Source: Acidobacteriota bacterium (lineage in GTDB: Bacteria; Acidobacteriota; Blastocatellia; RBC074). From it: 64,000 nucleotides of DNA. The stretch lies in NCBI GenBank assembly GCA_016196035.1, contig JACPYM010000095.1, forward strand, positions 62,001 to 126,000, in the 5' to 3' direction. Positions 20,631 to 50,599 of this stretch are shown piece after piece. Positions within the stretch are counted from its first letter, which is position 1. Every line of letters begins with the position of its first letter. The notes under the pieces were generated by a model. It was not told the origin of the DNA, did no database searches, and worked only from the letters and a program-made list of their open reading frames with translations. The position numbers were made by a program, and so were the translations under genes.

Positions 20631-20986
20631 TGCGATGCCGGCGGAAACGCCGGGAAGCTAGCGCGGTTTTCAGTTCAATGCCGGAGGAAGCGCCGCCGTG
20701 GGTGGGACAAGCTGGCATCCCAAATCCACGGTTAAGCAGTTGAAATCACAGTTTCGACCAATAGCAGCGGGCTTTTTTGTCAGCCTGGCTATTCACCCAG
20801 GGAGTGAAATTGCGCCGCCGTACAGCAGACTGCCAGTCTGCTGTAGACGCGGCCAGTGGGCTATTCGCCGAGACTACAGCAGACTGGCAGTCTGCTGTAC
20901 GGTTTTAGCCGTGGATTCAGGATGGCATCTTGTCCCACGCTCAATCCTCCACGCATTTGCGGCAAGCCAATGAAAGGAAGAAGTGT
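20631..20986. other. 356-bp spacer between anti-sigma and CHAT genes filled by nested palindromes
   Basis: Apart from the nested element at 20698-20942, only a short GC-rich stretch and the CHAT ribosome-binding site (GAAAGGAAG, about seven bases before the ATG) are seen. No gene is supported. Confidence 0.6.
20698..20942. repeat. Nested palindromic element (outer arms plus inner palindrome)
   Basis: The outer arms at 20698-20733 (GTGGGTGGGACAAGCTGGCA onward) and 20908-20942 are inverted copies, and both contain CCACGG and GGACAAG-type blocks. Inside lies a second inverted pair at 20819-20902, with arms of the type TACAGCAGACTGCCAGTCTG. This looks like one MITE-like unit carrying another. 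Confidence 0.75.
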
Positions 20987-23900
20987 ATGAACAAGCCCCG
21001 CGCCAATCCATTGCTACTGGCCGGCTGGATGTTTTGCCTGTGCGCCGCCGCTGTCGGGCAACAACAAGACAATACGCTCCTCTTGCCAGCGTCGCCGGTC
21101 GAACGCGAAATCGCGGGCGGACAAGCTCATCACTATCAAATCACGCTGCTGACCGGGCAAAGCCTGAAGCTCAAAGCCGAACAACAGGGCAGCGATGTTA
21201 TCCTGACGCTGTTCAGCCCGGAAGGGCAGCAGCTTGCCGAAGCAAACCTGCCGAATGGAACCAGGGGGTTGGAATGGCTGCTCTGGTTGCCGCAACGCAA
21301 TGGCGCTTACCAACTCAAAGTCACGTCAAACGACAAAGGCGCAACGGCGGGCCGTTATGTCCTCAGCGCCGAAGTCGCGCCAGCCGATGAAAAAAACGTG
21401 CTGGCGATTCAAAAATTTAACGAGGGGATGCAGTTGCGCAAAACCGGTCAGCGTGAATCATTCCCGCAGGCGTTGCGCAGCTTCGCCGAAGCCCTGACGG
21501 CTTGGCGCGCCGCCGGTGATCGTGGGCTGGAGGCCAGTACCTTGCAGCAACTCGGCGGGGTCAGCGGACGCGCCGGCAATCATCAACAAGCCCTCGACTA
21601 TTACCAACAGGCCCTGGCGCTTTTCCGCGCGCTGGAACTGAAACCGGAACAGGCGGAGGTGCTGAGTAACATCGCCGACAGATATGCAGCGTTGGCGGAG
21701 CTGCCGAGCGCGCTGGAATACTACCAACGGGCGCTGGCGCTCCGGGAATTTCTCGCGCCGCTCAATGTGGGCATTCTGTTGGATAACCTCGGCCAGGTGT
21801 ATGCCAATCAGGGCGATTATCGAAAGGCGCTGGCCGCGCATCAACAGGCGCTGGCGCTGTTTCAGGAACTGGGCGCGCGGAAAGACGAACTGGTGACGTT
21901 GCCGCGGATTGCCAGAGTGCAACGGCTGTTGGGAGACTATGCCCAGGCGCTGGCTTGGCTGAATCGGGGGCTGGCACTCAGCCGGGAACTGAAAGCGCCG
22001 GTCGAGGAATCATTCAACTTGCAACAGCTCGGACAGCTTTACGCCGTCTCCGGCGACCAAGCGCGCGGGGTCGAATATCTGGAACGCGCGGCAGCGGTTT
22101 GCCGCGCCGAAAAAAGCCGCTCGTGCGAGATGAATGCGGTGAATCAGTTGGGGCAGCTTTACAAAGACCAGGGCGCGTCTGACAAAGCGCTGACCGCGTT
22201 CAATGAAGTGCTCGCTTACTTTGGCGAGCTTGGCAGCCGGGTTTCTGAAGCCGTCACCAAAGGACACCTCGGCGACATTTTGGCAGCGCAAGGCGAGTAC
22301 CCACAGGCGTTGTCCTATCAGAACCAGGCCCTCGCTACTTTACGAACTGTTGGGGCGCGCCAGGCGCTGGTCGTGCGGCTCATTCGGACGGCGGAAACTT
22401 ACCGGAACGCCGGGCAGCCCGAAAAGGCCAAAGAGTTACTGACAGAAGCGGCCACCGCTAATCAGGACATTGGGAGCCGGAGTGATGAGGCGCAGATTTT
22501 CCGCGCGCTGTCTGCACTCGCGCGCGATGAAGGCCAACTGCAACCGGCGCGCGAACTGATCGAAAAATCGTTGCTGGCGATTGAGCGCCAGCGGACCGGC
22601 GCGCTTACGCCAGCGTTGCGCGCCACCTTCGGCGTGTTCCTGCACCGTTACTATCAGGACTACGTCGAAATTTTGATGGCTTTGCACGCGCAGTCGCCAA
22701 CAGCAGGCTATGCCGCGCTGGCGCTGGGCGCGCATGAACGTGTCCGGGCGCGCAGTCTGCTGGATTTGCTGAGCGAAGCGCGCGTGGAGTTGCGGACGGG
22801 CGTTGAGCCGGCGTTGCTGGAAAAAGAACGCTTGTTGCAGGAACAGGTGAACGCCCGCGAAACGTTGCGCCGCCAGTTGTTGGAAAATCAACGGACTGCC
22901 GCACGCGCCAAGGCGTATGAGCCGGAAATCAGCGACCTGCTCACTCAACTCCAAACCGTCGAAACGCAAATTCGCGCGGCAAGCCCGCGCTTTGCCGCGC
23001 TGACGCAACCCGCCCCGCTCACGCCCGCCGCTCTTCAGCAGCGCGTGCTGGATGACGACACGTTGCTGCTCGAATACGCGCTCAGCCCCCAACGCAGTTA
23101 TTTGTGGGCGGTGACGACGCAGGAACTGCACAGTTTCGTTTTGCCCGACGTGGGCGTGATCGAAGCCGCCGCGCGCCGCTGGCTCGACCTCTTGCCGAAA
23201 GGCACGCAGCGCAAATATCAGCGCGAAACCGAACTCGCCGCCGCCGAACTGAGCCGCTTGATCCTCGCGCCCGCCGCCGCGCATTTGCATAAAAAACGGC
23301 TGGTGATCGTGGCGGATGGGCTGTTGCAATACGTGCCGTTCGCCGCCTTGCCGGTTGTCGGTAGTCAGTTGCCGGTTGTCGGTAAAAACTTAGTTCCTAA
23401 CCGACAACCGACAACCGCTAACCGGCAAACCTTGCTTGCCCGCCACGAACTCGTCAGCTTGCCCTCGGCTTCGGCGCTGGCGGTGTTGCGCAACGAAATC
23501 AACGGGCGTCCGGCGGCCGCCAAACAACTCGCCGTCTTTGCCGATCCCGTTTTTCAAGCCGGCGATGCGCGCGTGCAACTGGCCAAGACCACGGCGCCCG
23601 GCACCACAAAGATGACGGAAAGCGCAAAAGATTTGGCCGCGCAAGCGCTGACGCGCGCCGCCGCCGAGGCGGGCCTGACAAGCTTCGCGCGGCTGCCTTT
23701 CGCGCGTCAGGAGGCTGAAACCATCGCCAAGTTGCTGCCGCCGGCGCAGCAGTTGAAAGCGCTGGATTTCACGGCCAGCCGCCAAACCGCGCTGACCGGC
23801 CAACTCAATCAATACCGCCGCCTGCATTTCGCCACGCACGGCCTGCTCAACAGCCAGCATCCGGAATTGTCGGGCATCGTGCTCTCGCTGGTGGATGAGG

Positions 23901-24262
23901 CGGGTCAGGCACAGGACGGGTTTTTGCGCCTGAGCGATTTGTACAACCTCAAGCTCAATGCCGACCTGGTCGTGCTCTCGGCCTGCCAAACGGCGCTGGG
24001 CAAAGACGTGCGCGGCGAAGGCCTGGTTGGGCTGACGCGCGGCTTTATGTTCGCCGGCGCGGCGCGCGTCGTGGCGAGTTTGTGGAACGTCAACGATGCC
24101 GCGACCGCCGCACTGATGCAGCATTTTTACCGCGCCATGCTGATCGAAAAGCTGACCCCCGCCGCCGCCTTGCGCGCCGCCCAACTGGCGCTGGCGCGCG
24201 ACCCGCGCTGGGCCGCGCCGTATTACTGGTCGGGCTTCGTGTTGCAGGGGGAATGGAAATGA
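20987..24262 (+). CDS. CHAT-domain (caspase-like) protease with TPR array
   Basis: A 1091-residue protein. Signal peptide (LLLAGWMFCLCAAAVG), then a beta-rich domain to about 130 resembling a pre-peptidase domain (QAHHYQITLLTGQSLKLKAE), a TPR array from about 140 to 530 (recurrent ALDYYQQALALFRAL and NLGQVYANQGDYRKAL patterns), a linker helix region, and a C-terminal CHAT domain. The catalytic pair is visible: His951 in LHFATHG and Cys1000 in LSACQT, followed by GEGLVGLTRGFMFAGAARVVASLW. CHAT proteins are cysteine peptidases of the caspase clan, used in regulated proteolysis or cell death. A heptamer hairpin is read through near residues 788-815. The start has GGAAG six bases upstream. Confidence 0.93.
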   Translation: MNKPRANPLLLAGWMFCLCAAAVGQQQDNTLLLPASPVEREIAGGQAHHYQITLLTGQSLKLKAEQQGSDVILTLFSPEGQQLAEANLPNGTRGLEWLLWLPQRNGAYQLKVTSNDKGATAGRYVLSAEVAPADEKNVLAIQKFNEGMQLRKTGQRESFPQALRSFAEALTAWRAAGDRGLEASTLQQLGGVSGRAGNHQQALDYYQQALALFRALELKPEQAEVLSNIADRYAALAELPSALEYYQRALALREFLAPLNVGILLDNLGQVYANQGDYRKALAAHQQALALFQELGARKDELVTLPRIARVQRLLGDYAQALAWLNRGLALSRELKAPVEESFNLQQLGQLYAVSGDQARGVEYLERAAAVCRAEKSRSCEMNAVNQLGQLYKDQGASDKALTAFNEVLAYFGELGSRVSEAVTKGHLGDILAAQGEYPQALSYQNQALATLRTVGARQALVVRLIRTAETYRNAGQPEKAKELLTEAATANQDIGSRSDEAQIFRALSALARDEGQLQPARELIEKSLLAIERQRTGALTPALRATFGVFLHRYYQDYVEILMALHAQSPTAGYAALALGAHERVRARSLLDLLSEARVELRTGVEPALLEKERLLQEQVNARETLRRQLLENQRTAARAKAYEPEISDLLTQLQTVETQIRAASPRFAALTQPAPLTPAALQQRVLDDDTLLLEYALSPQRSYLWAVTTQELHSFVLPDVGVIEAAARRWLDLLPKGTQRKYQRETELAAAELSRLILAPAAAHLHKKRLVIVADGLLQYVPFAALPVVGSQLPVVGKNLVPNRQPTTANRQTLLARHELVSLPSASALAVLRNEINGRPAAAKQLAVFADPVFQAGDARVQLAKTTAPGTTKMTESAKDLAAQALTRAAAEAGLTSFARLPFARQEAETIAKLLPPAQQLKALDFTASRQTALTGQLNQYRRLHFATHGLLNSQHPELSGIVLSLVDEAGQAQDGFLRLSDLYNLKLNADLVVLSACQTALGKDVRGEGLVGLTRGFMFAGAARVVASLWNVNDAATAALMQHFYRAMLIEKLTPAAALRAAQLALARDPRWAAPYYWSGFVLQGEWK
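23349..23431. repeat. Heptamer-armed hairpin inside the CHAT gene
   Basis: The left arm has 7-bp units TTGCCGG, TTGTCGG, TAGTCAG and TTGCCGG, TTGTCGG; the right arm has the inverted AACCGAC, AACCGAC, AACCGCT, AACCGGC. It lies in frame and encodes a low-complexity V/G/N/R/Q segment between the TPR-to-CHAT linker and the CHAT domain. It is a repeat insertion tolerated by the protein. Confidence 0.85.
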
Positions 24263-30678: not shown

Positions 30679-32610
30679 TCAAAGAATCTCGCGCGCCTCG
30701 CCGACGCGCCGCGTCACGCGCAACCGGTCGAGGTGTTCGAGTAACGGGATCGCGTATTTGCGTGAGATACCGGTCAGGTCTTTGAACGCGCCGACTTCCA
30801 GTTTGGGGCCGTGTTGGGCTTTGTGTTGTTGCAGCAGCGGGCGCAATCCTTCGAGCGCTGTGCGGTGAAAGAGCAGATCGCTGACGCGCACCAGTTCGCC
30901 GCTGTTGATCAGCATCTGGGCGAAACGTTGCGCGCGGGCGTTGTCAATGCCGTGTTGCGGCCCCAGTGCTGACAACGCCTGCGCAATGGCTTGTTCCAGC
31001 GCGAGCGGTTGCAGCGCGGCGTCGGCGTAAAGTTTGGCGAGGTGATCTTTGGCGGCTTGCTCTTCGGCTGTGAGCGCGACCTTGTGCGAGGCGAGGCGCA
31101 GCAAGTCTTTTTCGGCGGCGACCTCGTTGCGTTCGGCCAGTTGGGTGATGACGGCGCGGAAGATGTCGGCGTGCGTATGGGCGAAGAGCTTTTCGCGCAA
31201 CTCTTCGCGGCCCATCCCGGCGGCGAGCGGCGTCTTTTGGTGGAACTCTTTCAGCGTCGCGCGCACCTGTTTCGCCAACTCTTCAAACGGCGTTTTGGCA
31301 AGCAGGCGCAATGGCGTGCTGGCGATGGTGAGCAGGCGTTTGCTCTTCGTCCATTTGTCCGCTGCTTGTTTGATGACCGCATCAGGCGCGCCTGAACGCG
31401 CGGCTAGCTCGGCGTAATCAAGCCCGGCTTCGCCCGCCAGTTCGACCAACAACGCCAGCCGTTCAGGCGCATCGGCAATCGTCAACGCCGCGAGTTGTGC
31501 GACGACTTTGGCTTTGGCGCGCGCGCGATGTTTGTGGGGCAGCGCGTCAACGACCGTGCCGCCGCCGATGGTGACGGTGGGCGAATAGCTGCGCGCGATG
31601 AAATGATCGGTGGGCAGCGCGAGCACCGGCGCTTCCAAACGCAATTGGGCAAAGCCCGCCGCGCCGGGGGCGAGTTCGGTGGCTTCGAGCAACACGACGC
31701 GCGCCAACGCTTCGGCTGTGCCGATGTGCAGGTGTATGCGCGCGCGCGAACGCAACGGGCGCGGCGCGGTTTTGAGCAGTTGCAAACGCACATCCAGCAA
31801 TTGCGTGGCGCGCAAACGGCCCGCGGGCGCGAGCGTTTGGCCGCGCGCGACGGCGTCGAGGTCAATGCCTTGCAGATTGATGGCCGTGCGTTCGCCGGCG
31901 AAAGCTTCGTGCGTGCCTTTGCCGTGCACTTGTAAGCCGCGAGTCTTGGCGCGCAGCGTATTCGATGGATAAACCTCCAACTCATCGCCCGTCTTGATCT
32001 GTCCGGCGACGAGCGTGCCAGTGACGACGGTGCCGAAGCCTTTGATCGTAAAGACGCGGTCAATCGGCAAACGCGCCACTGCGGCCTTGTCGCGTTCGGT
32101 AACTTGTTTCGCCAGCTCGGCCAGCGTCTTTTTCAACTGCTCAATGCCCGCGCCGGTTTTGGAACTGACGCGCAGGATGGGCGCATCGGCGAGAAACGAG
32201 TCGGCGACATATTCGCTGACTTCGGCCTCGACCAGTTCGGCGAATTCATCATCCACCATGTCGCACTTGGTGATGACGATCAGGCCGGCTTTGATTTCGA
32301 GCAGGCGGCAGATGTCGAAATGTTCGCGCGTTTGCGGCATCAGACTCTCGTCTGCCGCGACGACCAGCATCACCAAATCGAGACCGTGCGCCCCCGCGAG
32401 CATGTTTTTGACGAAGCGTTCGTGACCCGGCACGTCTACAAAACCGAAGTGCACATCGCCCACGGTCAGGTCGGCAAAGCCAATATCAATCGTGATGCCG
32501 CGCTCTTTTTCCTCTTTGAGACGGTCGGCATCCACGCCCGTCAGGGCTTTGACGAGCGCGGTCTTGCCGTGGTCGATGTGTCCGGCGGTGCCGACGATGA
32601 TACGTTTCAT
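30679..32610 (-). CDS. selB: Selenocysteine-specific translation elongation factor SelB
   Basis: A 643-residue protein, normal size for SelB. The GTPase domain has [35 protein letters not shown] and VITKCDMVD in the expected order, and the N-terminus GHIDHGKT with [12 protein letters not shown] separates SelB from EF-Tu. Domains II and III follow, then four winged-helix modules (from about residue 390) that bind the SECIS element of selenoprotein mRNAs. It delivers selenocysteyl-tRNA to the ribosome at UGA codons. selA, selD and tRNA-Sec are not in the window. A small gene ends 14 bp upstream and is probably co-transcribed. Confidence 0.96.
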
Positions 32611-33422: not shown

Positions 33423-36400
33423 ATGGAATTGCAATCCGGGATGAACACACCAACAGAATCGAACAAGAAAAAATGGCCCCGGCGTTTGCTGGGTTTGAGT
33501 TTGGGATTGCTGCTGTTAGTAGGCGCGCTCGGCATTGCCGCCTGGTATTACCTGCGTTCCGACAGGTTTAATCGTTATGTCGCCGACAAGATCGAACAGG
33601 GCGCGCGTGATTACGGCTTGCGCGTCAAAGTCGGCGGCTTTGATTACACCTGGTCGGTCAAGACGGCGCGGTTGCGCGACCTCGAAATCGTCAATCAACA
33701 AACGGGGCAGCGCATCGCCACGATCAAACAGGCCGTGCTCGGCACCGAAATCCCCGACCTCTTTGCGCTGACCTTGCAACGCAATGTCATTCTGAAAGAC
33801 CTGCAACTCAGCGGCGTTGAACTGCACGTTGACATTGACGCGCAAGGCCGCCACAACTTTGAAGGTGTGCGCCAGCCGGAAACGAGGTCCGAGAACATCA
33901 AAGTGGATTCGTCGCAGTTGCGCATTGCGCTGCGCGACAGCCAGTTCAGCTACAACGACCAGAAACACCTGTACACCACCACGCTTGAGGGATTGCAGGC
34001 GCGCGTTGAGCCTGTTGCCACAACACCCAATCTCCAATCTCCAATCTCAAATTTCAAAGCGCAGATCACTTCCAACGGCGGCAGCATTAGTTATGAAGCG
34101 CGCGCGGCCAGGCTAAATGAATTGACCGCAACGGCGACGCTCAACGCCTCTGGCGCGCAAATCGAAAGCCTGCAAGTCAACTCGCAACTCGGCGCAGTGA
34201 AAGCCAGCGGCAAGCTCGAAGAGTGGAAGGACTTGCGCTATGCCTTTGATGTCGAAACGCGCGCCGATTTGCACGAGGCGTTGCGTGTCTTTGCGCCTGC
34301 GGTTGATTGGAAAGGCGCGGTCAATGCCAAGGGCCAGATCGCAGGCACGACCGGCGACGCGGCGCGCTTTGCGTTCAAGGGCAATGCCGACATGCCCGAC
34401 TTGCTGGTCGCGCCCGCCCGCTTGCGCAATGTGACGGCGAGTGGCGTCAACCTCAGCGTGCAAAACAGCGCGGCGCATTACACCGCCGACCGCGTGCGTG
34501 CCGAAACCGTCCTGGCCGATGTGGTCAAACTCGGCAACATGGCGACGACCGGCGTCAAAGGCGAATTCAAAGACAAACGCACGGCGCTGACCGCGCAAAC
34601 CGCCACTGCCGCGCGCCTCGAATGGCCCGACGGAGAGGCGCATGACGGCGTGTTGCGCAACGTCAATTTCAATCTCAAAGAGCGCCGCTTCACCGTGGAC
34701 GGCGCGGCCAGCATCGCGGGTGGCCGCGCCCACAGCATCGAATTCGGCCCCGCGACGGCGCAGGCCGAAGCCGACAACGACATCGTGACGCTCAATAACA
34801 TCAACGCCAGCGCGTTGGGCGGCACGGCGACAGCGGAAGCGACCGTTGCCTTAACCCGTAACGGCCTGACGCGCATCAAGGGCAATTTCGCCGGTCTGCC
34901 GACGAGCAATTTGCTGGCGCTCTCAACCGTCAAAGCCGAGCAGGTGCCCGTCAGCGGCACGGTCAAGGGCGACGCCGACATCAGTTTCGTCAACAGCGCG
35001 CCGCAAAAATTGAGTGGCACAATTCGCGCCAACTTCGACGGCAAAGGCGCCGCGAGCATGGACGCGCTGGCTGTCAACGGCACTGTGCTGGTGCAAGCCG
35101 ACAATGGCGTCTTCAACCTGCAACAGGCGCAATTCAACACCGATGTGACCAAACTGAATGCCAGCGGGCGCCTGGCTGTGGAGAGCAACTCCGATTTGGC
35201 GGTGGCGGTCACCACGACTGATGCCAGTCAATTGTTGACGATTGCCAAAGCCTTTCCTGACGCCGCGCAATTCATCAAAGACTATGAACCGCTATTGACC
35301 GGCGACCTGCAATTCAACGGGCGCATTACGGGCAAGCTGGATGCGTCTGTCATCGAAGGCGATCTCAACGCCAGCAGCGTCGGCATGCGCGATGCCTTGC
35401 TGGGCGTGCTGACCGGCAAGCTGTATCTGGGGCCAAACGAATTGCGCTTCCAAAACGGCTTGCTCAGCGCGTCGAATGGCGGTTCGCTGAAATTCGATTT
35501 GGCGACACCCTTGGATGCGCTGGGCAATAACAACAGCGGCAAACTCGACGCGGTCATTGACAAGCTTGAACTCGAAGCCATTTTGGCCGCCGTGGGCGCG
35601 CCCTCGGCCATGCAATTCGTCGCGGGCAATGTCAGCGGCGAGGCGCATCTGACCGGCTTGCCCAAAGCGATGCAGGGTAGCGGGCACATCAATCTGATTG
35701 ACGGCAAGATTGGCAATCAAGCGGCGGAACTGGCCCAGGTTGATTTCAAGCTCGACGGCCAAAAGGTCTTGCTTGAAAAACTGGAAGCGCGCCTGTTGCA
35801 AAGCGGCCTCGTGGCGCGCGGCGAACTCGACCTGGAAAAGAAAACCTACCAACTCAGCGGCGCGGCCAAACAGATTGCGCTCGACCGGCTGGCCGAAGCC
35901 TTTGAATTGACCCAGGCGGAAGTCAAAGGCGCGGCGGACGCCACCTTCAACGTCAGCGGCTCATTCGACCGCGTCGAAGATTTGCGCGTTGAACTCAGCG
36001 CGCAGGCCGCCAACGTCAACGTCAATGGGCGCGACAGCGGCGAATTGAAGCTGACCGCGCGCACTGATCCCAGTGGACGCATTGACGCCGAATTGATGAC
36101 GGGCTTGTTTGTCGCGGCGGGCGGCCAGCCGCAACTGGTCAAAGCCAGCTTCGACGTGCGCAAGGATGGTCGCCCCGTCGTGATCGAGAGCGCTGTGCGC
36201 GACCTAGACCTGGTGGCGGTGCTCAACACTTTTGCGCCCGATCTGGCTTCGTCATTCAAGGGCAAATTCAACGGCAAGCTGCGCATCGCCGGGCCGACGG
36301 TCAACGCCAGCGGCGAAGCGACCGCCGATCTGTTGCGCGGCGGCGTGACCTTTGACGCGATTGAGTTGCAGGTGCAGGGCAATCCGGTCACGGTGCAAAC

Positions 36401-39400
36401 GCCGCTGGTCGTCGCGCTGGAAGGGCCGCAACTGCGCATCACGCCGACCAAACTGACCGGGCAGGGCATTGACCTGAGCCTCGGCGGCGAACTCGGCTTG
36501 CAGGACACGGGCCGCATGGCCTTCGCCTTGAACGGGCAGGTGACGCTGGCGAATCTGCCGCCGGTCAGCCCTGAGTTGCGCTTGGATGGCGTGGTGACGA
36601 TCAACAACGCGCGTATCAGCGGCACCTTTGCCGAGCCGAGTTTGAGTGGCGAAATCCTGCTCGACCGCATCGGCATCTTTTCGCCTGACGCCCCGGCTGC
36701 TGTCGAGGAAGGGCGTGGGCGCATTGTGCTTAGCGGCGATAAAGCGACGCTCGAAAGTTTCAAGGCGCGCATCAACGAGGGCGCGCTCGATGTCAACGGC
36801 GCGCTGACCTTCGCCCAACTGCGGCCCAAAGAATGGAATTACACGCTCAAGGCCACCAACGTTGACATCATTTATGCCGAAGTGCGCGCGACCGTGAACG
36901 GCACGCTCAATCTGGCGGGCACGCCCGAAGGCCAATTGCTGAGCGGGCGCGCCGATGTGAGCGATGCCGAATACACCGGCCAGATTGATCTGGATGGCTT
37001 GGTCGCCGGGCGCAACATCGCGCCGGGCTTGAGCCGTTTTAGCGCGCCGGGCATCGGGCGGCGCAACCCTGGCTTGCCGCCGATCAATTTGAATGTGCGC
37101 GTCGAAGCGCGCGATTCGGTCGTCATCCGCGACAAAGAGATCAATACCGTCGGTTCGGCGCTGCTGACCTTGAGCGGGCCGCTGACCGATCCTTCGATGG
37201 CGGGGCGCGTTTCCGCCGATGGCGGGACGGTGCGCTTTCGCGGCCAGCGTTACGAAGTCACGACGGCGACGCTTGATCTGTTGGGCGGCGGCGCGACGCC
37301 CGTGCTCAACCTGCGCGCCGAAGGCACGACCAGCGGTTATCGCGTGACCATCGGTTTTGTCGGGCCGGTGGATCAGCTCGATCTGACGCTGGCGTCTGAA
37401 CCCACGCTGACGCGCGATGAAATCCTGACGCTGATTGCGACGGGACGCACGGAAAATCGTTCGATTGCAGGCGGCGGCAGCGGCAGTCTGCTTTATAGCG
37501 GCGTGGATGCGGCGGCGTCGTTGTTCTCCTCCGGCTTGACCAAAGATTTAGAACGGCAACTGGGCATCATTGGCATCAACCGTTTCCAGATTGATCCGGT
37601 CTTCCGGCCCAACACCAACCCGGCGGCGCGCGCGACCATCGGCGGCCAGTTGGCGCGCAGCCTCTATTACAGCTTCGCCACCGATCTCGCCTCCGAAGGC
37701 GACCGCACGGCGCTGGTCGAATACACGTTCTCAAATACGTTCTCGACGATTGCGACTTATACGCAGGGCGGCACGGCGTCACGTGGCATTAATGCCAACA
37801 ACGATTTCGCCCTGGAAATTCGCGGGCGCAAACGCTTCTCGCTGGGGTTCAAGCCCGATACGCCGACGCTGGCGAATACCGACCCGAACGCCAATGCCAA
37901 CGCGACCCCGCCACCTGCTGTACGGCCCAAATTGCCGCTGGCCAATGTCGCCGTGACGCCGCTGACCGGCGTGTCGCTGAGCCAGCGCACCTTGCGCGAA
38001 TTGCTGCCGGTGATGACGCAGGGTTTCAGCCGTTCGCTGGCGCGCCTGGGCGAACGGCGCTTGCTGAATTACCTGCAAGAGAAGGGCTACTTTTTTGCCG
38101 ACGTCAAAGCGCGTTGTGAACCTGTCAGTTGCGGCGGCGATGGCTTGCAACTGTTTTACGATGTCGAGGCGGGCGAACGTTACCGGCTCAGCGATGTGCG
38201 GTTTGAAGGCGTGACGGCTTCAAAGGTGGACGACATCGCCGCCGAATTGCAGTCGCAACCGGCCAATCTGTTGGCGAGCGTGCCGTTCGTCCGCAACCTG
38301 CCGCTGGTGGGCAGCTTGAAACGCGGCCTGACCAGCAATGAATTGATCCGTGGCGATGTCGAGACGCTCCGGCGCGTCTTGCTGGATCGCGGCTTCCGCG
38401 ACGCGCGCGTCACGTCGCGTTACGCCGTCACCGAAGAGAATGGTTTGGTGCTGGTCTTCAACGTCGAAGAAGGCCCGCAATCGCGCGTGGCCGATGTGAT
38501 CATCAAAGGCAACACGCTGATGACCGACGGCGATGTGCTTTTCACGGTGCCCATTGGCACGGACGACATCTTCTCGTTGACGCAGGCGGCGGCGGGCACG
38601 CAGCGCATCAAACAGCTTTACGCCCAGCAGGGCTATCTGGAAGCGAACGCCGAACTGGAAGTGATCGAACTGGCCCCGGATCGCGTGCGGCTGCAATACA
38701 ACGTCACCGAAGGCACGCAGGCGCTCGTCTCCGAAGTTGAAGTCACCGGCACGACCAAAACCAAACTCAACTGGGTGCGCCGCTACTACGATTTCAAAAC
38801 CGGCCAGGTGCTGACGCCGCAGCAGATTCGCAACACACAACGCGATCTTTACGCCACGGGCGCGTTCCGCGAAGTCGGCTTGCGCAGCGAATTGCTCGAC
38901 CCCGTCACGGGCGCGCACCGCATCACACTGAATCTGACCGAAGCCAAACCGCTGCTGTTTGTTTATGGCGCGGGTTATTCGACCGACGACGGCGCGCGCG
39001 GCCTGATCGAACTGACCAACAACAACATCGCCGGCACGATGGATGCGCTGACCTTGCGGTTGCGCGCCAGCCGCCGCGAACAATTCTCGCAATTGCTCTT
39101 TACCGATCTGCGGCCCTTCGGCATGAAGCTGCCGACGACGGTTTCGGTCTTTTACAATCGCAACGGCGACTTGCGCCCATCCACCCGGCGGCGCGAGCAA
39201 CTGGCCGATGGCACGGTGCAGGATGTGCCGGATGTTGCTTCGTTCGGCCTGCAACGTTTTGCTTTTTTTGTGCAAACCGAGCGCCGGCTGAATCAGCGAA
39301 CTTCGCTGCGCTTCCGCTATAACTTCGAGCGCGCCAACCTGTTCAACTTCGAGCAGAACTTCCCTGAGACGGAAGTGACGCGCAATGAACGCGCGGTGCG

Positions 39401-40112
39401 CTTGGGCATCGCGTCCGTCGGCATTACGCGCGACACCCGCGACAATTTGTTGTTGCCGACCAAGGGCCAACTGTTCAGCGCCGATCACCAACTGGCCACG
39501 ACGTTGCTAGGCGGCAACGAATCGTACAACAAGTTTTTCATCAATTATCAACGCTTCCACACGCTCGCGCGCGAGACGCCCGTGCTCAAGGATTCGACGC
39601 TGGCGGTGGCGGCGCGTCTGGGCGTGGCGTCAGTGTTCAAAGCTGCCGACCGCAACGGCGACGGTGTCATCAGTCTGTCAGAGCAACGCTTGCCGATCAG
39701 CGAGCGGTTCTTTTCGGGCGGCGCGACGACCTTGCGCGGGTTCAAATTCGAGACCGCCGGGCCGCAAGGCATTTTGGAACCGCGTCCGGGCACGCGTGAT
39801 TTGCCAACGCTGGTGCCGTTGGGCGGCGATGCCGAAGTGCTCTTCAATTTTGAACTGCGCTACCCGTTGACGCAGCGGCTGCGGCTGGTGCCGTTTTATG
39901 ATGTCGGCAACGTGTTCTATCAGGTCAAGGATATAAACTGGGCGCGCATGACAAACACGATAGGCGTCGGGTTGCATTTCAATACGCCGCTGGGGCCGAT
40001 TGGGGTGGATTACGGCTTCCTGCTTGACCCGCCATCGTTCGTCACGGCGTCCGGTGCTATACTGCGGCAACCACGCGGAGCAATCCATATTCGATTCGGA
40101 CAAACATTCTAG
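33423..40112 (+). CDS. TamB-Omp85 (TamA/BamA-like) fusion protein
   Basis: A 2229-residue protein. An inner-membrane anchor (RRLLGLSLGLLLLVGALGIAAWYYL, residues 20-43) is followed by a long AsmA/TamB-like repetitive beta region; the DUF490 domain ends near 1470 (LTLASEPTLTRDEILTLIATG). A Pro/Asn-rich linker (about 1475-1510) leads to about four POTRA-like domains to about 1840 (YRLSDVRFEG, VADVIIKGNTLM, VSEVEVTGTTKTK), then a 16-strand-type barrel at 1843-2229. The barrel holds the loop-6 motif LRGF near 2106 and ends in IHIRFGQTF, a terminal aromatic as in OMPs. From family knowledge TamB and TamA form an export and lipid-transport bridge; here both are in one chain. Start could instead be ATG 33441, which overlaps an upstream TGA. 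Confidence 0.93.
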   Translation: MELQSGMNTPTESNKKKWPRRLLGLSLGLLLLVGALGIAAWYYLRSDRFNRYVADKIEQGARDYGLRVKVGGFDYTWSVKTARLRDLEIVNQQTGQRIATIKQAVLGTEIPDLFALTLQRNVILKDLQLSGVELHVDIDAQGRHNFEGVRQPETRSENIKVDSSQLRIALRDSQFSYNDQKHLYTTTLEGLQARVEPVATTPNLQSPISNFKAQITSNGGSISYEARAARLNELTATATLNASGAQIESLQVNSQLGAVKASGKLEEWKDLRYAFDVETRADLHEALRVFAPAVDWKGAVNAKGQIAGTTGDAARFAFKGNADMPDLLVAPARLRNVTASGVNLSVQNSAAHYTADRVRAETVLADVVKLGNMATTGVKGEFKDKRTALTAQTATAARLEWPDGEAHDGVLRNVNFNLKERRFTVDGAASIAGGRAHSIEFGPATAQAEADNDIVTLNNINASALGGTATAEATVALTRNGLTRIKGNFAGLPTSNLLALSTVKAEQVPVSGTVKGDADISFVNSAPQKLSGTIRANFDGKGAASMDALAVNGTVLVQADNGVFNLQQAQFNTDVTKLNASGRLAVESNSDLAVAVTTTDASQLLTIAKAFPDAAQFIKDYEPLLTGDLQFNGRITGKLDASVIEGDLNASSVGMRDALLGVLTGKLYLGPNELRFQNGLLSASNGGSLKFDLATPLDALGNNNSGKLDAVIDKLELEAILAAVGAPSAMQFVAGNVSGEAHLTGLPKAMQGSGHINLIDGKIGNQAAELAQVDFKLDGQKVLLEKLEARLLQSGLVARGELDLEKKTYQLSGAAKQIALDRLAEAFELTQAEVKGAADATFNVSGSFDRVEDLRVELSAQAANVNVNGRDSGELKLTARTDPSGRIDAELMTGLFVAAGGQPQLVKASFDVRKDGRPVVIESAVRDLDLVAVLNTFAPDLASSFKGKFNGKLRIAGPTVNASGEATADLLRGGVTFDAIELQVQGNPVTVQTPLVVALEGPQLRITPTKLTGQGIDLSLGGELGLQDTGRMAFALNGQVTLANLPPVSPELRLDGVVTINNARISGTFAEPSLSGEILLDRIGIFSPDAPAAVEEGRGRIVLSGDKATLESFKARINEGALDVNGALTFAQLRPKEWNYTLKATNVDIIYAEVRATVNGTLNLAGTPEGQLLSGRADVSDAEYTGQIDLDGLVAGRNIAPGLSRFSAPGIGRRNPGLPPINLNVRVEARDSVVIRDKEINTVGSALLTLSGPLTDPSMAGRVSADGGTVRFRGQRYEVTTATLDLLGGGATPVLNLRAEGTTSGYRVTIGFVGPVDQLDLTLASEPTLTRDEILTLIATGRTENRSIAGGGSGSLLYSGVDAAASLFSSGLTKDLERQLGIIGINRFQIDPVFRPNTNPAARATIGGQLARSLYYSFATDLASEGDRTALVEYTFSNTFSTIATYTQGGTASRGINANNDFALEIRGRKRFSLGFKPDTPTLANTDPNANANATPPPAVRPKLPLANVAVTPLTGVSLSQRTLRELLPVMTQGFSRSLARLGERRLLNYLQEKGYFFADVKARCEPVSCGGDGLQLFYDVEAGERYRLSDVRFEGVTASKVDDIAAELQSQPANLLASVPFVRNLPLVGSLKRGLTSNELIRGDVETLRRVLLDRGFRDARVTSRYAVTEENGLVLVFNVEEGPQSRVADVIIKGNTLMTDGDVLFTVPIGTDDIFSLTQAAAGTQRIKQLYAQQGYLEANAELEVIELAPDRVRLQYNVTEGTQALVSEVEVTGTTKTKLNWVRRYYDFKTGQVLTPQQIRNTQRDLYATGAFREVGLRSELLDPVTGAHRITLNLTEAKPLLFVYGAGYSTDDGARGLIELTNNNIAGTMDALTLRLRASRREQFSQLLFTDLRPFGMKLPTTVSVFYNRNGDLRPSTRRREQLADGTVQDVPDVASFGLQRFAFFVQTERRLNQRTSLRFRYNFERANLFNFEQNFPETEVTRNERAVRLGIASVGITRDTRDNLLLPTKGQLFSADHQLATTLLGGNESYNKFFINYQRFHTLARETPVLKDSTLAVAARLGVASVFKAADRNGDGVISLSEQRLPISERFFSGGATTLRGFKFETAGPQGILEPRPGTRDLPTLVPLGGDAEVLFNFELRYPLTQRLRLVPFYDVGNVFYQVKDINWARMTNTIGVGLHFNTPLGPIGVDYGFLLDPPSFVTASGAILRQPRGAIHIRFGQTF
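34028..34057. repeat. Heptamer run (CAATCTC) inside the TamB region
   Basis: Three CAATCTC units followed by degenerate AAATTTC, in frame near residues 203-212 of the TamB-Omp85 protein. No inverted partner is evident nearby. Confidence 0.7.
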
Positions 40113-46117: not shown

Positions 46118-46463
46118 GAGCTTACTCTGCGATTTTAGATTTCTTTGGGAAAGATTTCAGACGCGACTTACGGCTAAAATTCAGCGTCAGCATACTAATG
46201 CCAGCCTGCCAACCCGGCAAGACGGATAGGCAATACCGGATTGTCTGCCAAAAAAGGCGCGGCCAGATGCACGGCTATAGATTTCAAGAAAATGTTTCTT
46301 GCTGTAAATAATTCGAGGCTGGAAAGGGAACCAACGTTCAGAGCTCACGCTTCAGCGTGCCTGCTGGTTGCCATTCACACGCTGAAGCGTGAACTCTGAA
46401 CTCCAGATGTGTATCGGATGTCTGTCAGGCGCCGCTCCCGTAGTGTCACAGTGAGGCTGCGCT
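46118..46463. other. 346-bp spacer with a palindrome, no gene seen
   Basis: Between the ATPase gene (ends at 46464) and the start of the PD40 regulator. AT-richer than its surroundings in the right half, where regulator promoters are expected. It contains the palindrome at 46336-46401 (GTTCAGAGCTCACGCTTCAG onward and its inverse) and nothing else recognisable. Confidence 0.6.
46336..46401. repeat. Palindrome GTTCAGAGCTCACGCTTCAG arms
   Basis: Inverted arms of about 24 bp with one mismatch surround a short loop (CCTGCTGGTTGCCATT). It lies about 60 bp beyond the stop of the TIR-system ATPase gene and could end its transcript. No T-tract follows on either strand, so simple rho-independent termination is not supported. 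Confidence 0.75.
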
Positions 46464-49283
46464 TCAATTTGCTTTTGGGCCTTTTGAGCCAGGCCGGGCG
46501 GGTGTCTTTTGAGAAGGCGCATTTTGTTCGTAGGGCATCTGCTTCAATTCAAGCTGGGGTTCGTAAGCCGCCAGGGTGGGAATCCAAACCTCGAATTTGC
46601 CGCGCGCTTCGTTGGCGTAACGCTCGCCGAGAAAGATCGGTTGCAGGGCCAGCTTGATGCGGTTCTTGAGCAGGACGCGCTGGATTTGCATGCGGATGGT
46701 GTCGGCGGTCTTTTGATCTTCGACATAAAAATAGCGCACATCGCCGACGGTGCGGGCATTCGGGATGGTTTGCACTTTTTCGATCACGAAGCGTTTGCCC
46801 AGGGCTGCGGTAATCGGGGGCGTGAAGCGTTTGGCGTCCTCATCGTTTTGAAAATGTAGGAAGACGCGATTGGTCACAACTGGCGTGACTTCCACCGCAC
46901 CCAGGCGGCGCAATTCCTGCTTGGCAATCTGGCTCTTGTTGGGGTCGAGTGGCAATTCGGCGGACTTGCGGTAATCGGCAACGGCGCGCGCACGGTCGCT
47001 GCGCAATTGGGCGAGTTGGGCGCTGTTGAAATAGGCCTCGCCGTAATCAACTTTGAGTTGAACGGCGCGGTCGAAATCGTTTTGCGCCTGATCGAATTGT
47101 TTGAGTTGCACCCGCGCGCTGCCCCGGCTGTTATACGCCTCGGCCAAGCGCGCATCGCTTTCGATGGCTTTGTTATAACTGGCCTGCGCCGCCTCAAATT
47201 GTTTGAGCGCGACCTGGGCATTGCCCAGGCTGAGATAGACCTGGGCCTGAGCCGAAGCCGTACCCGCACCTTTCGCCAAAGCTTGTTGATAATCGCGGAT
47301 GGCAGCTTCGTAATTGCCCAGTCCTTGCTCGGCGTTCGCGCGCGTGAAATAGGCGGCGGCGAGTTGCGGCGTGGCGTCCAGGGCTTTGCTGGCGAAATCA
47401 ATGGCCGCTTTGTAATCTTCGAGCGCCGCTTTGGCGTCACTGTTTTTCTTGCCGTTTTCGTAATAGCCCTGCGCTTTGAGTTGATTGGACTTGGCCTCTT
47501 CCTCTTTCGTATGGGGCTGCACGGTAGTGCCTGAGTTCGGATCAACAGGCGATGCGGTGCGGGTGCGCAGCAGACTGTAAACGCCGATGAAGCCGAGCAG
47601 CACCACCGCCGCCAATACCAGCAGGCCCCAGCCGATACGGCGCTTGCTAACTGTTTCTGCATACGCCTGCGAGGTGCGCAGTTGGGCTTGCATCTGCTGT
47701 TGCTGCTGCATCTGGGCGGCGCTGATTTGAATGTAATCGCTCTCGGCCTGATTCAGATCGGCGGCGCGTTTGGTTTGCCAGCTTTGCGCAACCTCCAGCA
47801 ACGCGCCGCTCAACAGCGCGCCCTGATCGCGTTGCGTGCGTTCCCAGGCGGCCATGCTGGTACGCAGGAATTGCCGCCAGAACAAAAAGTCGTAATCGTC
47901 TTTGAGCCATTGGCCCAGCCGCGTCCAACCCTTCACGGCTTTTTCGTCGGCGAGTTGCACAGTCGCGTCGTTGCTGCGGGCTTCGCCCGTGATATTGACG
48001 ATGCGGGCGGCAGCCAGCTTCTCGATGATTTGCCGCTCGTCGCCGAATTCATCCAGGCGCAACCGATTGCGTGTGTATTCGCCTTCCTGATTGGGCGGGG
48101 TCAACCGCACCAGGCGTTTCAACACGCGCGCGGCCAGGTCTTGCTCGCTCGGCGCAAAGACGCTGAACGCGATTTCCATGCGATTGTCTACTTCCACCAA
48201 CGGCAAGCGGTCGCCGAAGAGCTTGGCCATCTCCGGTTCCAGTTTGTGCCAGATGGCCTGATTGCTTTCGCCGCGCGCGAGCAGGCCCAGATGCAGCGAA
48301 ATCTTTTTATAGGCATCTTCCAACTCTTCGGCGCGGTCAGTCCGGGATTCTTTGGTTTGATTGGCGCTCTTGATGGCGAGCTTTTCGGCGTAGGCATATT
48401 TGGGCACGTAGGGGATGCGCAATTCCCAAAAATTCGTTTCCAGATTGTGAAAGGGCGCGGGCGTAAACGGATCGAGGTGTTGGCGGAAAAGCTGCTCGAA
48501 GGCATTGCGGTCGGCCAGTTCGCTGATGTCTATGCGCGTCGGCACGATCACCATATCGAGCGGGCGCTGGCGATGCTTGATGATTTCGGGCCGGGTAAAG
48601 GAGCGCGTCATCTCTTCGACGCCGCGCAGGTTTTGCGCATTGGGCACGCAGAACGACACTACGACATCGGCCATCTGCCGCGTGCAGACGCCGCCCATTT
48701 CGGTGACGCCCGTGCGGCTGTCAATCAACACAATGTCAATCCGGTTTTGCGTCAGCAACTGGCGGCGTAACCAATCGAAATAAAGTTCGCCTTGAAAGTC
48801 GGCATAAAAATCCGACCAGTCGAAAGTTTGCACGGCCTGGGCGTAAGCGGAAAACCGATCCTTGGCGCGCAAGCCGGCGGGCAACAGCCACAAGGCTCCC
48901 GCGCGCCCATCCGCAGCACTGCCGAGCGGGTGAATCGGATAGAGCGCCGTTGTGAGCGGCGTTAGATTTTCTTCGAGCATTTGCAGCGCTGCCACTTGCT
49001 CGGCGGACGTATACGCGCCGCTTTCCGCTTTCGGCCAGGGCAGGCGGGAGAACTGGCGTTTATAGGCGACCAGCAGATCAATCAGTCCCAGTTGTGACTG
49101 AATCAGTTCCAGGTTCGCGGCGTCTTCCGTCCGGCTGTAGAAATAGTTTTCCAGCCCCGGCGCTTCCAAATCCCAATCAATCATCACCACGCGCAGCCCC
49201 TGCAAATAAAACCATTCGGCCACGTTGGCAAGCGCCATCGAACGCCCGACGCCGCCTTTGTATGAATAGAAGGTGAAGATCAT
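46464..49283 (-). CDS. KGGVGR-type SIMIBI ATPase with STAND-like winged helix, TM helix and TPR tail
   Basis: A 939-residue protein. The N-terminal domain is MinD/ParA-like: Walker A variant YKGGVGRSMAL (K9, with R14 in place of the usual Lys), then VVMIDWDLEAPGLENY (D36, D38) and IVLIDSRTGVTEMGG. A central segment (about 365-540) resembles the winged helix and helical cap of STAND ATPases (VLKRLVRLTPPNQ, EKLAAARIVNITGEA, FLRTSMAAWERTQRDQGALL). A TM helix near 549-571 (LLVLAAVVLLGFIGVYSLL) is followed by TPRs at about 600-780 and a C-terminal domain with DVRYFYVEDQKTADTI. It starts 131 bp after the TIR gene on the same strand, the space holding a small R1-core palindrome. KGGVGR ATPases are often paired with TIR proteins; the joint role is inference. 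Confidence 0.9.
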   Translation of the reverse strand: MIFTFYSYKGGVGRSMALANVAEWFYLQGLRVVMIDWDLEAPGLENYFYSRTEDAANLELIQSQLGLIDLLVAYKRQFSRLPWPKAESGAYTSAEQVAALQMLEENLTPLTTALYPIHPLGSAADGRAGALWLLPAGLRAKDRFSAYAQAVQTFDWSDFYADFQGELYFDWLRRQLLTQNRIDIVLIDSRTGVTEMGGVCTRQMADVVVSFCVPNAQNLRGVEEMTRSFTRPEIIKHRQRPLDMVIVPTRIDISELADRNAFEQLFRQHLDPFTPAPFHNLETNFWELRIPYVPKYAYAEKLAIKSANQTKESRTDRAEELEDAYKKISLHLGLLARGESNQAIWHKLEPEMAKLFGDRLPLVEVDNRMEIAFSVFAPSEQDLAARVLKRLVRLTPPNQEGEYTRNRLRLDEFGDERQIIEKLAAARIVNITGEARSNDATVQLADEKAVKGWTRLGQWLKDDYDFLFWRQFLRTSMAAWERTQRDQGALLSGALLEVAQSWQTKRAADLNQAESDYIQISAAQMQQQQQMQAQLRTSQAYAETVSKRRIGWGLLVLAAVVLLGFIGVYSLLRTRTASPVDPNSGTTVQPHTKEEEAKSNQLKAQGYYENGKKNSDAKAALEDYKAAIDFASKALDATPQLAAAYFTRANAEQGLGNYEAAIRDYQQALAKGAGTASAQAQVYLSLGNAQVALKQFEAAQASYNKAIESDARLAEAYNSRGSARVQLKQFDQAQNDFDRAVQLKVDYGEAYFNSAQLAQLRSDRARAVADYRKSAELPLDPNKSQIAKQELRRLGAVEVTPVVTNRVFLHFQNDEDAKRFTPPITAALGKRFVIEKVQTIPNARTVGDVRYFYVEDQKTADTIRMQIQRVLLKNRIKLALQPIFLGERYANEARGKFEVWIPTLAAYEPQLELKQMPYEQNAPSQKTPARPGSKGPKAN

Positions 49284-49301
49284 TGTTGTTGCCTTGGGTA
49301 T

Positions 49302-49376
49302 GTGTCAGTAGCCCGCGCGTGAGCAAGGGCTCGACTGGCGCAGAAAAGCCCTTGCTCACGCGCGGCCTACTGACAC
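49302..49376. repeat. Small palindrome with the R1 core (GCGTGAGCAAG)
   Basis: GTGTCAGTAG and its inverse bound a 75-bp hairpin whose arms carry CCGCGCGTGAGCAAGGGC. It shares the core of the R1 elements but has neither the TAGATCGG ends nor their length. It sits in the 131-bp spacer between the TIR and ATPase genes. Confidence 0.8.
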
Positions 49377-49414
49377 CTTTCACGCTGCCGCAAACACAAA
49401 CATTGTGATGCGAG

Positions 49415-50599
49415 TCATTGCTGCAAAAACGGACTGCGCGCCTGCGGTTGTTGCGCCTGGAGCCGGCTGACAAACTGGCCCAGGTTCAAACAGAACAGGC
49501 GTTTGATATTTTGATCGTCGCTCAGATTCAACCCCAAATTTGAATACGAACCGGACGGGAAAATCGGCGGATCGTAGTATTCGTTGATAAATTCCAGCGA
49601 GAAGCTTTGCAGCGTGCGGCACATCTCATCCAACAGCTCAGGGGTTTTGAAAGGTGCCAGCATCATCACGACCACTTTTTCGTTTTTGAAGCACTCGTCC
49701 AGATCGCGCAAGCGTTTGCTGACCAGATTGTGGTAGAGCGACAGCGGATCAATGACCAGTACTGACGGTGTATCCGTCGCCAGCAATTTGGCGCGTTCCT
49801 GATTGACGATATTGCGATCCGTCCAAAACGCGGGATCGAGTGGTTCCAGCCGAAACTGGCGCGGCGTCTGTTTCTGGCGCGCGGCCACGTCCGCCAGCCG
49901 TTGATTGATGGCGTCACACTGGCGGTTCAGAATGTTCTCAATGGATTCCGATCCGCGAAACGGTTTCCAATCCAGGCGGCGCGGGCCATAAAACTGCCGC
50001 AACTCATTGCGATCAGCAATGCCGATCTTGGTTAGCAACTGGCTCAAGGAAGGCAAGTCAGGCAAGTCCTCTTGCAACTTGTCTATTTCGTCGGCAGTCA
50101 CGGCCAGCACCGCCAGCGTGATCGGAATCGCCGGGTCGTCCTTTTTGACGCCCACGGCGATTTCATTGACGATCTTTTGCCACAAGTCTTTGTTCACGTT
50201 TTCAACGCCCGCGCGATAGGCATCGGCGTCTTTCAACTCGGTGATCGCCTGCAAGCCGGTCAACGCCTTGTTTTGCCCTTCCAGCGTGAGCGAGATCAAG
50301 CGGCGTTGCTCGGATTGATCGGGCGGCGCCGAGAGCAGATAGGTGTTGAAGGTCGCGATTTCGAGCGAGACCCAATCTGAACCTTTCGCGTTTTCAGACC
50401 AGAGCACAACCAGATGCCGCGCCTCGCGCAAGGCCATCGCCAACTGCCTGTCCCAGGGTTTGCCCGCCTCTAGATCGCGGTCATCAAAAAAGGTCTTGAT
50501 GCCTTTGGCCTGCAACGACTGGTTGAGCTTCGCCGCCCAGGGCCGATCCAGGCTGCTGTACGAAATAAATATGTCACGCTGAAAATTCGGGTTCGCCAT
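49415..50599 (-). CDS. TIR-domain protein, partner of the KGGVGR ATPase
   Basis: A 394-residue protein. N-terminal TIR domain (residues 7-135): DIFISYSSLDRPWAAKLNQSL, TFFDDRDLEAGKPWDRQL, HLVVLWSENAKGSDWVSLEI. Glu80 in WVSLE occupies the position of the catalytic glutamate in NAD-cleaving TIR domains, so NAD hydrolase activity is possible. The C-terminal two-thirds (to FVSRLQAQ) is a helical/Rossmann-like region with LDWKPFRGSES and VLVIDPLSLYHNL, and is not recognised; it may link to the ATPase or sense a ligand. ATG 50597-50599 follows AGGGA by about nine bases. The next gene in the same direction encodes the KGGVGR ATPase. Confidence 0.88.
   Translation of the reverse strand: MANPNFQRDIFISYSSLDRPWAAKLNQSLQAKGIKTFFDDRDLEAGKPWDRQLAMALREARHLVVLWSENAKGSDWVSLEIATFNTYLLSAPPDQSEQRRLISLTLEGQNKALTGLQAITELKDADAYRAGVENVNKDLWQKIVNEIAVGVKKDDPAIPITLAVLAVTADEIDKLQEDLPDLPSLSQLLTKIGIADRNELRQFYGPRRLDWKPFRGSESIENILNRQCDAINQRLADVAARQKQTPRQFRLEPLDPAFWTDRNIVNQERAKLLATDTPSVLVIDPLSLYHNLVSKRLRDLDECFKNEKVVVMMLAPFKTPELLDEMCRTLQSFSLEFINEYYDPPIFPSGSYSNLGLNLSDDQNIKRLFCLNLGQFVSRLQAQQPQARSPFLQQ

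What the first reader, a model, noticed from the sequence alone, without database searches (positions are those of the whole stretch)
46464..50599. Two-gene TIR / KGGVGR-ATPase module with a STAND-type winged helix and membrane TPR tail
Seen: a TIR protein with the Glu80 expected for NAD cleavage is followed, on the same strand, by a protein whose MinD-like domain has an Arg in the second Walker A lysine position (KGGVGRS), fused to a STAND-like winged helix, a TM helix and TPRs. Known: TIR proteins act as NADases in bacterial immunity, and STAND winged helices connect sensors to effectors. KGGVGR-variant ATPases are known next to TIR-like FxsC proteins, but no FxsA or FxsB gene is in this window. 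Inference: the ATPase senses a signal at the membrane and releases the TIR activity. A SIMIBI ATPase in place of a STAND ATPase is the unusual point.
Basis: partly seen in the sequence, partly recalled or inferred. Interest (0 to 1): 0.8.

Follow-up and report, generated by a model that had tools for sequence, protein, structure and literature searches.

The report
TIR effector with membrane ATPase switch
An acidobacterium carries two neighbouring genes that look like a suicide-type immune alarm: one makes a TIR enzyme likely to destroy the cell's NAD, the other a membrane-anchored sensor built on an unusual MinD-like ATPase, and the same two-part design recurs with interchangeable parts across many bacteria.

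Summary
P0001 (49415-50599, minus) is a TIR protein; Glu80 falls at the NADase glutamate. P0002 (46464-49283, minus) is a KGGVGR MinD-type ATPase joined to the C-terminal winged-helix part of an nSTAND1 protein, one TM helix, TPRs and an alpha/beta domain.

The pair is not an isolated oddity. In 72 of 77 related loci the gene directly upstream of the KGGxGR ATPase carries the same C-terminal domain as P0001; 4 of the other 5 have a TIR-only gene. That domain is homologous to the FxsC C-terminal domain, and its N-terminal head is exchangeable (TIR, DUF4062, bDLD1, EAD1, EAD7). P0001 itself fails the FxsC cut-offs, and the genome has no FxsB above cut-off.

Many relatives carry a full STAND NTPase behind the KGGxGR ATPase. 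P0002 and four others lack it but keep its winged helix; this form arose at least three times. The closest relative (60% identical in the ATPase) has a TIR-like plus NB-ARC cassette exactly at the join.

Best reading: an NLR-like two-protein conflict switch in which the KGGxGR ATPase can work without STAND. Activity, sensing and phage defence are untested. New variant of a known kind.

The parts
49415..50599 (-). P0001, 394 aa: TIR domain (about residues 8-153) plus FxsC-C-like alpha/beta partner domain (158-383)
50360..50362 (-). Codon of Glu80, putative catalytic glutamate of the TIR
49451..50128 (-). Partner domain of P0001 (residues 158-383), shared with 76 other partners of KGGxGR ATPases
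49302..49376 (.). Intergenic palindrome (30-nt arms), member of a genome-wide repeat family
46464..49283 (-). P0002, 939 aa: SIMIBI KGGVGR ATPase, nSTAND1-type winged helix, TM, TPR, C-terminal alpha/beta domain
48279..49283 (-). SIMIBI domain (residues 1-335), KGGVGRS at residues 9-15
47769..48197 (-). nSTAND1-type winged-helix segment (residues 363-505)
47568..47624 (-). TM helix (residues 554-572)
46905..47507 (-). TPR region (residues 593-793), likely sensor
46581..46871 (-). C-terminal alpha/beta domain (residues 805-901), unassigned

Best explanation
The pair is a two-protein conflict (immune) switch. P0002 sits in the inner membrane: its KGGVGR SIMIBI domain and winged helix face the cytoplasm, its TPR and C-terminal domain lie beyond the TM helix and act as sensor. 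P0001 is the effector: its C-terminal domain docks on the SIMIBI domain and its TIR head is held inactive or unclustered. A signal at the sensor changes the nucleotide state or dimerisation of the SIMIBI domain through the winged helix; this clusters the TIR heads, which cleave NAD+ and stop the cell. Shown by computation: domain content, catalytic Glu, conservation of the pair, shared inheritance of SIMIBI and partner domain, exchangeable heads and sensors, repeated absence of the STAND NTPase. Inferred: direct contact of the two proteins, topology, ATP switching, NAD cleavage, and the trigger (phage or other invader).
For: L065 has both genes, 38% and 60% identical. 72 of 77 loci chosen only by ATPase similarity have the partner domain directly upstream, median gap about 15 nt; 4 of the other 5 have a TIR-only gene. 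SIMIBI and partner-domain distances correlate, r 0.756, largest of 2000 permutations 0.15. In L078, the next branch of the tree, TIR, partner domain and SIMIBI are three separate adjacent genes. Heads are effector or adaptor domains of conflict systems: TIR_2 54, DUF4062 9, EAD7 2, EAD1 2, bDLD1 2 of 73. Sensors vary as in STAND receptors: TPR, WD40, LRR, FGE. Catalytic Glu kept in all but two TIR-type partners. K9, R14, D36, D38, D188, R190, T191 invariant in 34 ATPases. All 9 ATPases of A1 match PADLOC candidate PDC-M28B. Patchy: close P0001 relative in 1 of 396 phylum genomes, the own one, while a flanking gene is in 10 of 11 genomes of the order.
Against: No experiment on this subfamily was found in the held library. 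The locus is not in a recognisable defence island: identified neighbours are CorA, a PD40 regulator, an oxidoreductase and a sugar transferase. Kaur et al. 2020 (PMC7159879) predict MinD/ParA-like domains in conflict systems to be inactive effectors, not switches. TIR domains can be scaffolds. Correlated distances do not by themselves show physical contact.
Confidence: 0.6

Rival explanations
1. The TIR makes a signal molecule (Thoeris-like) or acts as a scaffold, and another protein kills or stops the cell.
For: Distant matches of the TIR to ThsB and Thoeris ThcB4 models; in relatives the TIR is replaced by adaptor domains bDLD1 and EAD, which recruit other proteins.
Against: No second effector identified among the neighbours scanned; best structural matches are plant NADase TIRs; ThcB4 match is 31 bits against a cut-off of 220.
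Confidence: 0.2
2. The KGGVGR domain is not a switch but a dead MinD/ParA mimic that poisons cell division or partition (reading of Kaur et al. 2020 for related domains).
For: PMC7159879 states that the MinD/ParA-like domains of its systems are predicted to be inactive; the P-loop Lys is Arg.
Against: Arg14 and the other site residues are invariant in 34 proteins, unlike a decaying site; the domain is tied to one partner domain and co-varies with it.
Confidence: 0.15
3. An envelope-stress or developmental regulator, not immunity.
For: TM helix and TPR sensor; ordinary chromosomal neighbours.
Against: Exchangeable effector heads, death-like adaptor domains in relatives and patchy occurrence are usual for conflict systems.
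Confidence: 0.15
4. P0002's missing STAND is an assembly error that deleted a cassette.
For: The sister L065 has a cassette exactly at the join; no reads were available.
Against: Four proteins from other genomes, in two other lineages, show the same STAND-less join; the frame is intact.
Confidence: 0.03

Closest known systems
FxsC / KGGVGR ATPase gene pairs (NCBIfam NF040588, TIGR04276, NF047398), mostly Actinomycetota
   Same: TIR-like head plus homologous C-terminal domain directly upstream of a KGGxGR ATPase; 53 of 73 partners match FxsC_Nterm, 48 FxsC_Cterm; C-domains homologous by hhalign, 95.4%, E 1.8e-8
   Different: P0001 is below both FxsC cut-offs; P0002 lies in the other main clade of the ATPase tree; no STAND NTPase in P0002; no FxsB over cut-off in the genome
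MinD/ParA-like domains of conflict systems, Kaur et al. 2020, PMC7159879
   Same: SIMIBI domain of the MinD/ParA family in systems with TIR, AP-ATPase and TPR parts; one mention of an AP-ATPase with an added MinD/ParA-like domain beside peptide-processing genes
   Different: That paper calls the domain an inactive effector; the two-gene pair with a constant partner domain and swapped heads was not in the passages read; no MoxR or vWA gene among the neighbours scanned here
nSTAND1-type and other bacterial STAND (NLR-like) receptors, Kaur et al. 2021, PMC8195603
   Same: Winged-helix segment, TM, TPR/WD40/LRR sensor, TIR effector; that paper notes that other NTPases (KAP, AP-GTPase) can displace the STAND
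   Different: SIMIBI instead of the STAND NTPase; TIR supplied in trans by a partner gene
PADLOC candidate PDC-M28B (PDLC04559, PDLC04560)
   Same: All 9 ATPases of alignment A1 match
   Different: A candidate only; the match is partial and no PDC-M28 model matched the TIR partner
Thoeris and other TIR defence systems
   Same: TIR with the Glu in place, distant matches to ThsB and ThcB4
   Different: No ThsA-like gene identified nearby; the regulator is a SIMIBI protein

Membership tests
KGGVGR-motif variant ATPase (NF047398) | Score over the curated cut-off and KGGxGR motif | tested here: met
   140.7 bits against 90; KGGVGRS at residues 9-15
SIMIBI / MinD-ParA | MinD-like fold | tested here: met
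   MinD 4v02 Z 22.9, rmsd 2.5, 231 aligned
TIR NADase | TIR fold | tested here: met
   TIR_2 E 2e-20; RUN1 7rx1 Z 13.6, 137 aligned
TIR NADase | Catalytic Glu in place | tested here: met
   E80 aligned with Roq1 Glu86; that this Glu is catalytic in Roq1 is own knowledge
TIR NADase | NAD cleavage | not testable with these tools
   needs an enzyme assay
FxsC | FxsC_Nterm and FxsC_Cterm over cut-off | tested here: not met
   16.3 against 130 and 17.9 against 55 bits
FxsC | Homologous C-terminal domain, next to a KGGxGR ATPase | tested here: met
FxsC | FxsB radical SAM gene in the genome | tested here: not met
   best match 55.7 bits against a cut-off of 370; assembly 96.9% complete
STAND NTPase | Complete STAND P-loop NTPase | tested here: not met
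   nSTAND1 matched at 262-378 of 379 only; no Walker A in the STAND position
STAND NTPase | STAND-type winged-helix segment | tested here: met
   nSTAND1 profile 262-378, E 2e-15
MoxR-vWA ternary systems (VMAP, iSTAND) | MoxR ATPase and vWA genes nearby | tested here: inconclusive
   none among the larger ORFs scanned; not every ORF of the window was scanned
Thoeris | ThsA or equivalent effector nearby | tested here: inconclusive
   none identified among the neighbours scanned; ThcB4 31 bits against 220
Anti-phage system | Protects against phage | not testable with these tools
   needs phage challenge

The most novel reading that the evidence does not exclude
KGGxGR SIMIBI proteins and their constant-domain partners form a distinct class of NLR-like immune receptor across bacterial phyla (and perhaps archaea), in which the SIMIBI ATPase, not the STAND NTPase, is the switch. 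The repeated STAND-less forms, P0002 among them, are complete receptors that work from the membrane and fire a TIR in trans.
Probability: 0.35. Interest if true: 0.8.

Novelty: new variant of a known kind. Interest (0 to 1): 0.57.

Why it matters
STAND NTPases are the textbook switch of NLR-like immunity. If a ParA/MinD-type ATPase with an invariant Arg in its P-loop does that job, and does it without a STAND in several lineages, then natural STAND-plus and STAND-minus relatives (L065 and P0002, 60% identical in the ATPase) make it directly testable which NTPase is the switch. The constant partner domain with interchangeable heads also gives a handle for finding effectors: whatever is fused to it is a candidate.

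Tried and rejected
Viral contigs scanned for P0002: no relative. P0001 against plasmids: no match at 1e-5. Literature searches for KGGVGR, FxsC and related terms found no dedicated paper. An empty-site test failed: the flanking genes lie on different contigs in the relatives looked at. Promoter and terminator scans gave no more sites than shuffles. Chance adjacency was rejected because of L065 and the 76 of 77 loci. The idea that P0002's architecture is unique was rejected. High-scoring KGGVGR genes in three other genomes of the phylum (G165, G184, G190) lack the TFYSYKGG context and a TIR partner and were set aside.
Full report
Observation. The two genes lie as described on the minus strand. 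P0001 (394 aa) starts at the ATG at 50599 behind a GGAAAGGGA stretch; P0002 (939 aa) starts at 49283. P0001 has a TIR domain at residues 10-121. P0002 has a KGGVGR ATPase domain (140.7 bits against a cut-off of 90), the last third of the nSTAND1 profile at residues 367-487 with none of its P-loop part, and TPRs. There is one strong TM helix at 554-572 with KRR before it. The model of P0002 (mean pLDDT 84) shows SIMIBI 1-335, winged-helix segment 363-505, a long helix leading into the membrane, TPR 593-793 and a C-terminal alpha/beta domain 805-901; the SIMIBI part matches MinD with Z 22.9. The model of P0001 (mean pLDDT 81) shows the TIR and a second alpha/beta domain at 158-383; the TIR matches the plant RUN1 TIR with Z 13.6. 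Glu80 aligns with the Glu of Roq1's WCLEEL motif.

Relatives. A genome scan with an alignment of the ATPase gave 80 loci chosen only by ATPase similarity. The nearest, L065, has both genes: its TIR protein is 38% identical over nearly the full length and its ATPase domain 60% identical. In 72 of 77 loci with enough upstream sequence, the gene directly upstream carries a domain homologous to the C-terminal half of P0001; four of the other five have a TIR-only gene. The domain was found by iterated HMM; among 7116 ORFs of these loci it occurs practically only in the partners. An independent profile comparison of the P0001-side domain with the FxsC-side domain gave 95.4% probability, E 1.8e-8. 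Distances of SIMIBI and partner domain correlate (r 0.756; best of 2000 permutations 0.15).

Modularity. The head on the partner varies: TIR_2 in 54, DUF4062 in 9, EAD7 in 2, EAD1 in 2, bDLD1 in 2 of 73. In L078 the TIR, the partner domain and the SIMIBI are three adjacent genes. The tail of the ATPase varies too: TPR (L065, L066, L086), WD40 (L082), LRR (L084), FGE domain (L111, and L077 in a split gene). Effector heads and sensor repeats of these kinds are those of bacterial conflict systems (PMC7159879, PMC8195603). The Glu is kept in all TIR-type partners except L091 and L140.

STAND or no STAND. Many relatives have, behind the SIMIBI domain, a full STAND NTPase with a Walker A near residue 525-550, often after a TIR-like domain. 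P0002, L066, L086, L082 and L084 have the SIMIBI joined directly to the winged-helix segment. In L065, sister of P0002 with full support, a TIR-like plus NB-ARC cassette of about 450 residues sits exactly at the join. On a tree of 41 ATPases the STAND-less winged-helix form needs three changes, no bootstrap tree has it as one, and a single clade is rejected (p-AU 1e-48). Whether P0002 lost a cassette or L065 gained one is not settled.

Mechanism. The constant parts of the system are the KGGxGR ATPase and the partner domain; both ends vary. The simplest reading is that these two dock on each other, the ATPase tail senses, and the partner head acts. K9, R14, D36, D38, D188, R190 and T191 are invariant in 34 ATPases, so the Arg looks like a specialised site, not decay. 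Nucleotide-dependent dimerisation as in MinD and ParA (own knowledge) would bring two partner heads together, which fits TIR activation by clustering (own knowledge). Basic residues before the TM helix (P0002, L065, L082) and the need of the ATPase for cytoplasmic ATP put the TPR part outside the cytoplasm. Apart from the conservation and the flanking charges this paragraph is inference.

Known or new. NCBI already names the ATPase domain and the FxsC partner. Kaur et al. 2020 (PMC7159879) mention MinD/ParA-like domains in conflict systems and call them inactive; Kaur et al. 2021 (PMC8195603) note that other NTPases can displace STAND; PADLOC lists related ATPases as candidates. What appears to be added here is the constant partner domain beyond FxsC, the swapped heads, and the repeated STAND-less form. 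P0001 is not FxsC by its cut-offs, and P0002 is not a STAND NTPase. The pair is patchy: none of 395 other sampled genomes of the phylum has a close P0001, nor any of ten others in the order, while a flanking gene is in nine of those ten. So it is an accessory module and a new variant of a known kind.

Limits. The 80 loci are the best matches to P0002, so the 72 of 77 describes this subfamily, not all KGGVGR proteins. E-values of the iterated HMM come from a small database; hhalign is the independent check. No complex was modelled. No activity is shown.

Noticed in passing
window 33423-40112 (+): One 2229-aa ORF carries TamB, POTRA and Omp85 domains in one chain, an apparent TamB-TamA fusion.
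   Followed up: no
window 49302-49376 and 46336-46401: Palindromes stand on both sides of the KGGVGR gene; the first belongs to a family with 25 genome-wide matches against 1 for the control and separates two genes that are nearly always tightly spaced elsewhere.
   Followed up: partly
window 20930-24262 (+): A 1110-aa TPR-CHAT (caspase-like) protein in the same window, 22 kb from the pair.
   Followed up: no
window 30679-32610 (-): A SelB-type selenocysteine elongation factor gene; no tRNA gene was found in the window.
   Followed up: no
L058 (Pseudanabaena plasmid ABRG53a, 87008-100012): KGGTGR ATPase with a second Walker A motif (GDPGQGKT), in a gene row with a SAV_2336-type protein, a caspase-family protein and a beta-propeller protein.
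   Followed up: partly
L078 3292-7526: The same module as separate genes: TIR, partner domain, SIMIBI, TIR, NACHT.
   Followed up: partly
L067 (Methanothrix MAG): An archaeal bin carries a bDLD1-headed partner and a KGGVGR protein with a weak trypsin-like match and TPRs; a binning error is not excluded.
   Followed up: no
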